This document shows, one piece after another, positions 1 through 52,080 of a DNA stretch of 64,000 nucleotides. The notes below the pieces were generated by a model that was given only the letters and a program-made list of their open reading frames with translations, made no database searches and was not told the DNA's origin. Origin of the DNA: Leptolyngbya sp. FACHB-8. Its GTDB lineage: Bacteria > Cyanobacteriota > Cyanobacteriia > Elainellales > Elainellaceae. Both the position numbers and the translations under genes were made by a program. The stretch is taken from positions 1 to 64,000 of the forward strand of contig NZ_JACJOO010000075.1 in NCBI RefSeq assembly GCF_014695575.1, given 5' to 3'. The stretch's first letter is position 1. The number at the start of each line of letters is the position of its first letter.

Positions 1-157
1 GTTCGCGCCCGACGGGCGCGAACTCTCGGCTTTGAAGCCTGAAAATAGCCCGCCTTCGGCGGGCTATTTTCAGGCTTCAATTCAAAATGAGAATTGCTGT
101 TTTTCGAGTGCCGCGCGAAGCGCGGCACTCGAAAAAGCCCTTAACCCGAACTGAGGT
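1..157. mobile_element. Composite hairpin element, family B right part joined to family A-type end
   Basis: The stretch holds three perfect or near-perfect hairpins. One is at 1-23. The second is a 23-bp perfect stem (arms 32-54 and 58-80, loop TTC). The third is a 17-bp stem (arms 100-116 and 120-136, loop GAA). The part up to 99 ends in GAATTGCTG like family B, and the part to 157 ends in CCCGAACTGAGGT like family A (full copies at 32280, 35092 and 44416). The left end may lie outside the window. It follows the 3' end of the kinase gene at 196, so the hairpins may also end its transcript. Confidence 0.7.
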
Positions 158-2231: not shown

Positions 2232-2280
2232 CAGGATGTTGGTGCTTCGCCCACGAAGCGGGCAAAGCACCAACATCCTG
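2232..2280. repeat. Long hairpin, 16-bp outer stem
   Basis: Arms 2232-2247 and 2265-2280 are exact reverse complements, with an inner GCTTCGCCC / GGGCAAAGC part-match around the apex. It is of the same kind as the hairpin cores of the other elements, but no second copy of its flanks was found in the window. Confidence 0.7.
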
Positions 2281-6614: not shown

Positions 6615-6705
6615 CAGGACTTACGCATTTGTGTTGTGGGTGGGGTGCTTCGCACCCCACCCACAACACAAATACGCTACAGATAGCGGACTTGCGTAAG
6701 TCCTG
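6615..6705. mobile_element. Family C MITE-like element, 91 bp, inverted relative to the 2378 copy
   Basis: The ends are CAGGACTTACGCA and TGCGTAAGTCCTG. TTTAT at 6610-6614 is repeated at 6706-6710. The core hairpin (GTGTTGTGGGTGGGGTGC, apex TTC) is perfect. The AGCGGACTTGCG segment sits at the right, the mirror image of the 2378 copy. Confidence 0.8.
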
Positions 6706-27120: not shown

Positions 27121-27231
27121 CAGCAACTCCCATTATGAGCTTCAAAGGCGAGAGTTCGCACCTTTGAAGCTTGAAGATAGACCGCCTTCGGCGGTCTATC
27201 TTCAAGCTTCAATTTAAAGTGGAAATTGCTG
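27121..27231. mobile_element. Family B element, 111 bp
   Basis: The ends CAGCAACTCCCATT and AAAGTGGAAATTGCTG are imperfect inverted repeats. The core is a 23-bp perfect stem (27164-27186 with 27190-27212, loop TTC). It matches the core at 32-80 except for three positions, and each change is matched in the other arm. It lies 18 bases after the pentapeptide gene stop. Confidence 0.75.
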
Positions 27232-32255: not shown

Positions 32256-32279
32256 ATTGGTAATTAATTAAATTAATTA

Positions 32280-32401
32280 ACCTGAGTTCGGGTTAAGGGC
32301 GTTTTCGAGTGCCGCGCGTTGCGCGGCACTCGAAAACGCTCATTTTGGCGTGCGCTTTGCGCACGCCAAAATGAGCACTTCAGCTTATCCCGAACTGAGG
32401 T
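32280..32401. mobile_element. Family A MITE-like element, 122 bp, copy 1
   Basis: The ends are ACCTGAGTTCGGG and CCCGAACTGAGGT. TAATTA flanks it on both sides (32274-32279 and 32402-32407), though this flank is low-complexity. Inside are a 19-bp perfect stem (32299-32317 with 32321-32339, GTT loop) and a 16-bp perfect stem (32340-32355 with 32359-32374, TTT loop). No coding capacity. Confidence 0.85.
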
Positions 32402-32429
32402 TAATTAGGTGATTTCTGAAAAAGAACTT

Positions 32430-35091: not shown

Positions 35092-35213
35092 ACGTCAGTT
35101 CGGGATAAGCCGAGCCGCCCATTATTGCGTGCGCGACGCGCACACAATAATGAGCTTTTTCGAGTGCCGCGCTTCGCGCGGCACTCGAAAAAGCCCTTAA
35201 CTGGAGCTGAGGT
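35092..35213. mobile_element. Family A MITE-like element, 122 bp, copy 2
   Basis: It starts ACGTCAGTTCGGG and ends GAGCTGAGGT (one end slightly diverged). TAGTTA is present on both sides (35086-35091 and 35214-35219). Inside are the CATTATTGCGTGCGC stem and the CGAGTGCCGCGC stem. The left duplication includes the stop codon of the hydrolase gene. Confidence 0.88.
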
Positions 35214-35223
35214 TAGTTAACCT

Positions 35224-35305
35224 CGGGTGCATTCCACTTTTGTGAGGCGAGCAAAGCCCGCCTCACAAAAGTGGGTTCCTAAATCCGCAAAAGTGGGATG
35301 CACCC
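35224..35305. mobile_element. Family F MITE-like element, 82 bp, copy 1
   Basis: It starts CGGGTGCATTCCACTTTTGT and ends GTGGGATGCACCC. An exact 8-bp duplication GTTAACCT flanks it (35216-35223 and 35306-35313). The core stem is CCACTTTTGTGAGGCGAGC. It inserted into or beside the family A target site. Confidence 0.85.
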
Positions 35306-39119: not shown

Positions 39120-40103
39120 ATGGCGATCGATCGCTACGGGCGCAGCATCAACTACCTGCGGATTTCTCTGACAGATCGCTGTAATCTGCGCTGTGTCTAT
39201 TGCATGCCGGAGACGATGACCTTTCGTCCCCGTGCCGAACTGCTTCAGGATGAGGAATTACAGCGGCTTATTCCACTCTTTGCCACGATCCTTGGATTTC
39301 GAAAATTCCGGTTGACTGGAGGCGAACCAACTCTGCGAGAAAATATTGTGGGCTTGGTGCGCCATATAGCCGCTGCCCCCGGTGTCGAAGAACTGGCTAT
39401 GACGACCAATGGCGTGTTGTTATCAAAACTGGCACAGCCCCTCGCCGAGGCAGGATTGCAACGCGTCAACATCAGCATTGATACTCTCGACCCTGACAAG
39501 TTTAAAGCGGTGACACGCTGGGGGGACGTCGGCGACGTGTGGAGTGGAATTAAAGCTGCGACAGAAGTAGGACTACACGTCAAACTGAATGCTGTGATTG
39601 TACGCGGCTTTAATGACCGAGAAGACGTGATCGAGTTAGCGCGCCTAACTTACGACTTCCCCTGGCAGGTGCGATTCATCGAAATGATGCCCTTTGGAGA
39701 AGTGGCAGAATTTCAACAGGCCAACTCCGTCAGTGAAGCCGAATTACTGGCTCGTATCGGTGATACGTTAGATGCGCCGGTACTTCTCAATAACGGTCAA
39801 CTTGATGGAGAAGCCCGCCTGTACCAGCTACCAGGAGCTGTAGGAAGCTTAGGTTTCATCAGTCCGGTCACACAACCCTTTTGTGCTGGATGCAACCGGG
39901 CCCGGTTGACAGCTGACGGGCGCTTACGGCTCTGCCTGCTGCGTGACCATGAACTGGATGTACTCACCCCCCTCCGTCAAGGCATTTCTTCTACAGACTT
40001 ACAACAACTGATTGAAGATGCCATCTGGCTCAAACCCTGGGGCCATGGTTTAGCAGAAGAAGATGTCCCCCTAAACCGGGTCATGTCGGAAATCGGCGGC
40101 TAA
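39120..40103 (+). CDS. moaA: GTP 3',8-cyclase MoaA (molybdenum cofactor synthesis)
   Basis: A 327-residue radical SAM enzyme that begins molybdopterin synthesis by rearranging GTP. The N-terminal [4Fe-4S] motif is CNLRCVYC (Cys21, 25, 28), with GGEPTLRENI for SAM binding. The C-terminal second cluster uses FCAGCNRARLTADG and LRLCLL. Length is standard. No other moa gene is in the window. A hairpin terminator follows 5 bases after the stop. Confidence 0.95.
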   Translation: MAIDRYGRSINYLRISLTDRCNLRCVYCMPETMTFRPRAELLQDEELQRLIPLFATILGFRKFRLTGGEPTLRENIVGLVRHIAAAPGVEELAMTTNGVLLSKLAQPLAEAGLQRVNISIDTLDPDKFKAVTRWGDVGDVWSGIKAATEVGLHVKLNAVIVRGFNDREDVIELARLTYDFPWQVRFIEMMPFGEVAEFQQANSVSEAELLARIGDTLDAPVLLNNGQLDGEARLYQLPGAVGSLGFISPVTQPFCAGCNRARLTADGRLRLCLLRDHELDVLTPLRQGISSTDLQQLIEDAIWLKPWGHGLAEEDVPLNRVMSEIGG

Positions 40104-40198: not shown

Positions 40199-40297
40199 CT
40201 AGTACGCTGAGGCGGAAATCCATCACCTATGTTTTGTGTGGGGTGCTTCGCACCCCACACAAAACATAGGTTGTGAACTTAGGCCGCAGCCTACTAG
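40199..40297. mobile_element. Family E MITE-like element, 99 bp, copy 1
   Basis: It begins CTAGTACGCTGAGGC and ends GCCGCAGCCTACTAG, an inverted repeat with CTAG at both tips. The core stem CCTATGTTTTGTGTGGGGTGC is perfect, apex TTC. It lies between the convergent moaA and EamA genes. Confidence 0.85.
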
Positions 40298-44339: not shown

Positions 44340-44623
44340 TAAGGGCGTTTTTAAGTCAGTAATTCTCATTTTGGAATCCAACCCGAAAATAGCCCGCCGA
44401 AGGCGGGCTATTTTCACGTCAGTTCGGGATAAGCCGAACCGCCCATTATTGCGTGCGCGACGCGCACGCAATAATGGGCTTTTTCGAGTGCCGCGCGAAG
44501 CGCGGCACTCGAAAAAGCCCTTAACCCGAACTGAGGTTATTTTCGGGCTTCAACGCTGAAGCCCATACTGAGAATTGCTGCTTTTGAGTGCCGTACGTTG
44601 CACGGCACTCAAAAACGCCCTTA
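44340..44623. mobile_element. Family B composite element, interrupted
   Basis: It begins TAAGGGCGTTTTTAAG and CAGTAATTCTCATTTTGG, and ends AGAATTGCTGCTTTTGAGTG with a hairpin and CGCCCTTA, so the ends are inverted repeats. The core stem CCCGAAAATAGCCCGCC is broken by the family A copy at 44416-44537. Without the insert and one target copy it would be ~155 bp. Confidence 0.7.
44416..44537. mobile_element. Family A MITE-like element, 122 bp, copy 3, nested
   Basis: The ends are ACGTCAGTTCGGG and CCCGAACTGAGGT. TATTTTC flanks it on both sides (44409-44415 and 44538-44544). Both internal stems are near-perfect. Removing it and one TATTTTC restores the right arm of the surrounding family B hairpin (GGCGGGCTATTTTCGGG), direct evidence of insertion. 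Confidence 0.9.
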
Positions 44624-49219: not shown

Positions 49220-49320
49220 CTAGTACGCTGAGGCGGAAATCCATCACCTATGTTTTTGTGTAGGGTGCTTCGCACCCTACACAAAAACATAGGTTGCGAA
49301 CTTAGGCCGCAGCCTACTAG
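49220..49320. mobile_element. Family E MITE-like element, 101 bp, copy 2
   Basis: The ends match the 40199 copy exactly (CTAGTACGCTGAGGC and GCCGCAGCCTACTAG). The core stem differs from that copy by one extra T-A pair and one G-C to A-T pair, each changed in both arms. It lies between crtB and murJ. Confidence 0.87.

Positions 49321-50454: not shown

Positions 50455-52080
<1,626 letters not shown>

What the first reader, a model, noticed from the sequence alone, without database searches (positions are those of the whole stretch)
27121..27231. Both arms of the hairpin cores change together between copies
The 23-bp stems at 32-80 and 27164-27212 differ at three positions, and each difference is matched in the opposite arm. 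Family E copies (40199, 49220) differ by one pair and one inserted pair. Family F copies (35224, 51971) differ by four extra pairs and several substitutions, all still paired. The ends and apex stay fixed. Either the stem is under strong selection as a structure or a copying process (template switching, hairpin-primed repair) rewrites one arm from the other.
Basis: seen in the sequence. Interest (0 to 1): 0.7.

Follow-up and report, generated by a model that had tools for sequence, protein, structure and literature searches.

The report
Self-copying hairpin repeats in a cyanobacterium
Hundreds of small DNA hairpins scattered through this cyanobacterial genome keep their two halves matching because one half appears to be re-copied from the other, and their tips flip over almost at random, so the genome holds a natural record of a DNA-copying error that is usually very rare.

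Summary
The window comes from a 6.9-Mb cyanobacterial genome. I read 2.42 Mb of it: 1,308 short hairpins, against about 1 per 600 kb by chance, in at least 22 dispersed families. Copies were compared by their flanks, not by pairing. Between nearest copies, 163 stem columns changed in both arms and stayed paired, and 113 changed in one arm; independent mutation predicts 0.2 two-sided changes. (1) The 3-nt apex loop is not fixed: it occurs as a sequence and its exact reverse complement (TTC/GAA, GGA/TCC, GTT/AAC), often at near-equal frequency, even between copies identical elsewhere. (2) Two-sided changes lie more than about 8 bp from the apex (66 two-sided, 9 one-sided); one-sided changes lie within 8 bp (19 against 54; p = 7e-15). 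(3) Some copies have one flank replaced by the reverse complement of the other, lengthening the stem. A complete genome from another genus shows signs 1 and 2. Selection on structure alone cannot produce this; arm-templated copying with loop inversion (template switching) can. The process is known; its intensity on dispersed hairpin elements, and the ~8-bp boundary, I did not find described.

The parts
27121..27231 (+). D-family hairpin element; arms 27164-27186 and 27190-27212, loop TTC 27187-27189
   Evidence: DNA fold -34.8 kcal/mol, z -9.5
32..80 (+). D-family hairpin core, second copy; three paired differences from 27164-27212
40199..40297 (+). E-family element; core stem 40225-40246/40250-40271, loop TTC
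49220..49320 (+). E-family element; core stem 49246-49268/49272-49294, loop TTC; one changed pair and one inserted pair relative to 40199
35225..35305 (+). F-family element; stem 35233-35252/35256-35275, loop AAA, one-sided A.C at pair 3 and T.G at pair 20
51973..52060 (+). F-family element; stem 51979-52002/52006-52029, loop GAA, one-sided G.T at pair 6
32278..32403 (+). Composite two-hairpin element: loop GTT in hairpin 1 (arms 32299-32317/32321-32339) and loop TTT in hairpin 2 (arms 32338-32355/32359-32376), outer imperfect terminal repeats
   Evidence: genome-wide loop combinations
2232..2280 (+). Family 2 hairpin, window copy, one-sided mismatch near the apex
6624..6676 (+). Family 7 hairpin, window copy, loop TTC

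Best explanation
The hairpins are cores of non-autonomous, MITE-like dispersed repeats. During DNA synthesis across these near-perfect palindromes the nascent strand switches template at high frequency. Snap-back on itself, or a jump to the complementary strand, copies one arm from the other. A mutation in either arm is therefore soon either erased or copied into the opposite arm, so both arms appear to change together. An inter-strand switch that spans the apex returns the loop as its reverse complement. Correction needs roughly 8 bp of apex stem as a fold-back primer, so changes within 8 bp of the apex stay one-sided. A switch that runs past the stem end copies one flank onto the other and lengthens the stem. 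Shown: two-sided changes, loop inversion, the 8-bp boundary, stem extensions, and replication of the loop inversion and boundary in a second genus. Inferred: the polymerase, the timing (replication rather than transposition or repair), and the primer interpretation of the boundary.
For: Nearest-copy comparison in 10 flank-retrieved families: 163 two-sided, 113 one-sided, 0.23 two-sided expected; two-sided per column 0.036 against flank 0.060 per site. Transition share: two-sided 106/163 = 65%, clean flanks 71/110 = 65%. Loops between nearest copies: 75 same, 75 exact reverse complement, 47 other; stem-identical nearest pairs 32 same, 33 reverse complement; pairs identical at every compared base outside the loop 71 same, 67 reverse complement, 6 other. 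Apex boundary: pairs 1-8, 19 two-sided and 54 one-sided; pairs 9+, 66 and 9; Fisher p 7e-15; family D weaker (p 0.01), and mismatch rate in G/C columns 7.1% inside against 2.4% outside. Stem extensions copying a flank: L127:1850 (14/14), L036:9411 (10/10), L021 (11/11), L072 (6/6). Composite elements: the two loops flip independently (18/8/6/3 against 17.8/8.2/6.2/2.8 expected from the margins, worked by hand). Private or near-private paired changes in copies otherwise identical to the modal 93-nt element: L136, L140, L093, and a paired 2-bp deletion in L168. Replicate in G008, one contig: loops GCA 26, TGC 21; mismatches concentrated at pairs 1-7. Same signatures described for template switching (PMC8604942, PMC8794818).
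Against: No orthologous before/after pair was available, so single-step change is inferred from near-identical copies. Block inversion predicts that inner mismatches swap arms with the loop; the test showed no association (p 0.63). In the composite subfamily with TTC/GTC loops, one loop is never flipped, so rates differ between hairpins for unknown reasons. One-sided changes are 89% transitions, so transversion mismatches are removed faster or selected against. The family D boundary is weaker than in the others. Nearest-copy pairs share history, so the Fisher p-values are nominal.
Confidence: 0.75

Rival explanations
1. Selection on the hairpin as RNA or DNA structure: one-sided mutations are purged and rare compensatory mutations restore pairing.
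For: Stems are very stable; one-sided changes are mostly transitions (101:12), the best tolerated mismatches. REPIN work reports common compensatory changes and reads them as hairpin selection (PMC3116915).
Against: Selection can remove one-sided changes but should not generate two-sided ones at 0.6 of the flank rate. Transversion pairs are not depleted (35% against 35% in flanks). G-T and A-C mismatches are about equally common in element orientation (about 40:38 summed, family E left out), which gives no sign of an RNA read in that orientation. Exact loop inversion (up to 3 substitutions at once) and stem extension are not explained.
Confidence: 0.06
2. Ectopic gene conversion between dispersed copies, aligned in either orientation through the palindrome, replaces both arms and flips the loop.
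For: Many near-identical copies exist, and inverted alignment inside a palindrome would flip the loop.
Against: Does not create new paired states; private ones exist (L136, L168), although the genome was not read whole. Flank homology should favour direct alignment, yet loops are near 50:50. Stem extensions use the copy's own other flank. No reason for an 8-bp apex boundary.
Confidence: 0.08
3. The rewriting happens during transposition (folded intermediate repaired or resolved at insertion) rather than in situ.
For: Family 8 copies lie at different loci with 5-6 bp target duplications, and loops are already scrambled between otherwise identical copies.
Against: The two loops of one composite element flip independently and one subfamily barely flips. 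No transposase with these ends was found in the 2.42 Mb.
Confidence: 0.15
4. Assembly artefact: de Bruijn assemblers cannot orient a loop between arms longer than k.
For: Logically possible for long arms in a 95-contig draft.
Against: Loops are near 50:50 at arms of 16-18 bp and where a mismatch breaks the arm within 10 bp; the single-contig genome G008 shows the same; some loops never flip. It cannot produce paired substitutions.
Confidence: 0.03

Closest known systems
Template-switch / quasipalindrome-correction mutations (Ripley model; PMC8604942 in yeast, PMC8794818 in RNA genes, PMC7202029 in E. coli)
   Same: Arm homogenisation, exact spacer inversion (including GAA<->TTC in yeast), paired changes in one event, stem extension.
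   Different: There each event is rare: 69 loop-inversion-only cases and 6 with a compensatory change across rRNA data sets (PMC8794818), 10 spacer inversions in yeast genes (PMC8604942). Here inversion is near equilibrium across whole repeat families, and an ~8-bp uncorrected apex zone is resolved.
REPINs / REP elements (PMC3116915, PMC3733652)
   Same: Dispersed palindromic repeats; for REPINs, common compensatory stem changes.
   Different: Stems are 17-36 bp, longer than the 6-13 bp given for GTAG REPs; at least one family has 5-6 bp target duplications and asymmetric terminal repeats. No RAYT link was tested. Loop inversion did not come up in the passages of either paper that I read.
Small dispersed repeats of cyanobacteria (Elhai et al. 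2008, not held; cited in PMC3116915)
   Same: Very small mobile repeats in cyanobacterial genomes.
   Different: Could not be read here, so sequence identity with those families is untested.

Membership tests
Template-switch (quasipalindrome) mutation | Both arms of an inverted repeat made complementary in one event | tested here: inconclusive
   Private or near-private paired changes in otherwise identical copies fit a single event, but no ancestor/descendant pair was available
Template-switch (quasipalindrome) mutation | Exact inversion of the spacer/loop | tested here: met
Template-switch (quasipalindrome) mutation | Stem extension from the opposite flank | tested here: met
Template-switch (quasipalindrome) mutation | Arises during DNA synthesis, with replication-direction bias | not tested
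   Draft genome; replication direction and clonal reads not used
MITE | Short, no ORF, terminal inverted repeats, target-site duplication | tested here: met
   Family 8: 93 nt, imperfect terminal repeats, 5-6 bp duplications at most loci. Not shown for D or F; E ends CTAG...CTAG
MITE | Partner transposase with the same ends | tested here: inconclusive
   No transposase recognised between matching ends in 2.42 Mb, 35% of the genome
REPIN / REP | RAYT transposase association, GTAG or CGTC tag | not tested
   No RAYT search was made and no tag scan was run

The most novel reading that the evidence does not exclude
Loop orientation at hundreds of hairpins is a rapidly reversible two-state switch within a population, driven by template switching at rates well above point mutation, and these elements persist because the copying continually repairs their palindromes.
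Probability: 0.4. Interest if true: 0.8.

Novelty: new variant of a known kind. Interest (0 to 1): 0.64.

Why it matters
How long stems stay perfectly paired is an old puzzle. The template-switch answer predicts paired change plus loop inversion, a combination found to be extremely rare in RNA genes (PMC8794818). This genome offers hundreds of replicate hairpins in which inversion is near equilibrium, so rates, primer length and switch points can be measured directly. It also warns that covariation in dispersed DNA hairpins is not, by itself, evidence of functional RNA structure.

Tried and rejected
Orthologous copies: the only congener held is about 68% identical at nucleotide level, and the E family is absent from 59 relatives. 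Rfam: no match in the window. RNA reading: G-T and A-C mismatches about equal. Block-inversion linkage of inner mismatches with the loop: no signal. Autonomous partner element: none found. Assembly artefact: rejected. First regex retrieval timed out and was replaced by BLAST. A first nearest-neighbour count mis-scored opened apex pairs as paired indels and was replaced. G003, same taxonomic family, has 1 hairpin in 200 kb, so the load is not universal.

Full report
WHAT IS THERE. The window is contig C73 of a 6.93-Mb, 95-contig genome. GC is 51% and HIP1 (GCGATCGC) is abundant, as in cyanobacteria; the closest relatives of window gene 39120-40103 are cyanobacterial. I fetched 2.36 Mb more (2.42 Mb with the window). 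A hairpin scan (loop 3-12) found 1,308 hairpins scoring at least 12, against 1 in 600 kb of first-order Markov sequence. Shared flanks on both sides group 423 of them into 22 families.

The D stems (32-80, 27164-27212) differ at three pairs, all matched. The E stems (40199, 49220) differ by one pair and one inserted pair, matched. The F copies carry one-sided mismatches, at pairs 3 and 20 in 35224 and pair 6 in 51971, so 'all still paired' is wrong there. Two of those three lie in the inner 8 bp, where one-sided changes are common genome-wide.

UNBIASED COUNTS. To avoid selecting for pairing, copies were retrieved by flanks and folded afterwards. In ten families, between nearest copies: 163 stem columns changed on both sides and still paired, 113 on one side, 16 on both sides unpaired, 18 paired indels; 0.23 two-sided changes are expected from the one-sided rate. 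On the 52-copy family 8 alignment: 7 pairs with two-sided change against 1.7 +/- 1.1 in shuffles, 20 cells against 2.0, 0/500; slid versions give 0-2.

LOOP INVERSION. Loops occur as exact reverse-complement pairs while flanks fix the orientation: E TTC 20/GAA 16, family 4 TCC 14/GGA 12, family 5 GAA 14/TTC 13 among unambiguously oriented copies; family 8 GAA 27/TTC 22; D TTC 25/GAA 21, AAA 9/TTT 6, GAC 8/GTC 7, GTA 8/TAC 5. Copies identical at all compared bases outside the loop: 71 same, 67 reverse complement, 6 other. These are all pairs among copies and so not independent, and family 2 contributes most of them. Families 2 and 5 contain a number of ambiguously oriented copies (21 of 49 and 10 of 41); E, 4 and 8 contain few (2, 4 and 4), and the result does not rest on families 2 and 5. 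In composite elements the two loops combine independently. One composite subfamily hardly flips, so the rate varies.

NOT AN ASSEMBLY ARTEFACT. Orientation is balanced at arms of 16-18 bp (7:8) and where a mismatch interrupts the arm within 10 bp (23:29). An unrelated family in G008, a single-contig genome of another genus in the same taxonomic family, shows GCA 26/TGC 21 plus TGT 4/ACA 2.

POSITION RULE. From the apex, pairs 1-8 have 19 two-sided and 54 one-sided changes; pairs 9 and beyond have 66 and 9 (p 7e-15). In family 8, one-sided changes occur only at pairs 1-8 and 32-36 and two-sided ones only at pairs 11-23 in the 52 aligned copies. In G008 mismatches fall from 3-13 per pair at pairs 1-7 to 0-5 beyond. 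Family D shows it more weakly (p 0.01), and G/C-containing columns alone still show 7.1% against 2.4% mismatched, so base composition is not the whole cause. A fold-back primer of about 8 bp explains the rule; a size limit of mismatch repair in a small hairpin would give the same pattern and is not excluded.

STEM EXTENSION. In L127:1850, L036:9411, L021 and L072:10451 the flank beyond the usual stem has been replaced by the reverse complement of the other flank over 14, 10, 11 and 6 nt.

SPECTRUM. Two-sided changes are 65% transitions (106:57), equal to clean flanks (71:39); a compensatory path through G-T intermediates should enrich transitions. G-T and A-C mismatches are about equal, which gives no support to selection on an RNA in element orientation.

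MECHANISM AND PRIOR KNOWLEDGE. Arm homogenisation and spacer inversion by polymerase template switching are established (PMC8604942; PMC8794818; PMC7202029). In the rRNA study a compensatory change with loop inversion was called the strongest possible support and was extremely rare. REPIN authors saw compensatory changes and read them as hairpin selection. I found no report of loop inversion near equilibrium across dispersed repeat families, but the key cyanobacterial repeat paper (Elhai 2008) is not held. The switching step itself, its timing and its enzymes are inferred.

VERDICT. A real, strong and replicated pattern, best explained by a known mutational process acting at unusual intensity on MITE-like hairpins: a new variant of a known kind.

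Noticed in passing
Family 8 alignment A1, column 29/65 (pair 17 from apex): One stem pair takes all four states (C-G, T-A, G-C, A-T) among otherwise near-identical copies, always paired.
   Followed up: partly
apex of most families, e.g. window 27187-27189, 40247-40249: Loops are mostly 3 nt closed by GC (GCGAAGC type), resembling the unusually stable d(GCGAAGC) mini-hairpin (own knowledge).
   Followed up: no
window 32278-32403, 35100-35203, 44441-44520: Composite elements with two adjacent hairpins between imperfect terminal repeats (TTCGGGTTAAG...CTTATCCCGAA); 73 oriented copies in the 2.42 Mb.
   Followed up: partly
G003 (L261-L270) against G000: A complete genome of the same taxonomic family has only 1 hairpin in 200 kb, against more than 500 per Mb here.
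   Followed up: no
window 39120-40103: Gene whose relatives are mainly in Chloroflexi (about 60-72% identity) apart from a few cyanobacteria (mostly 76-82%), suggesting transfer between phyla.
   Followed up: no
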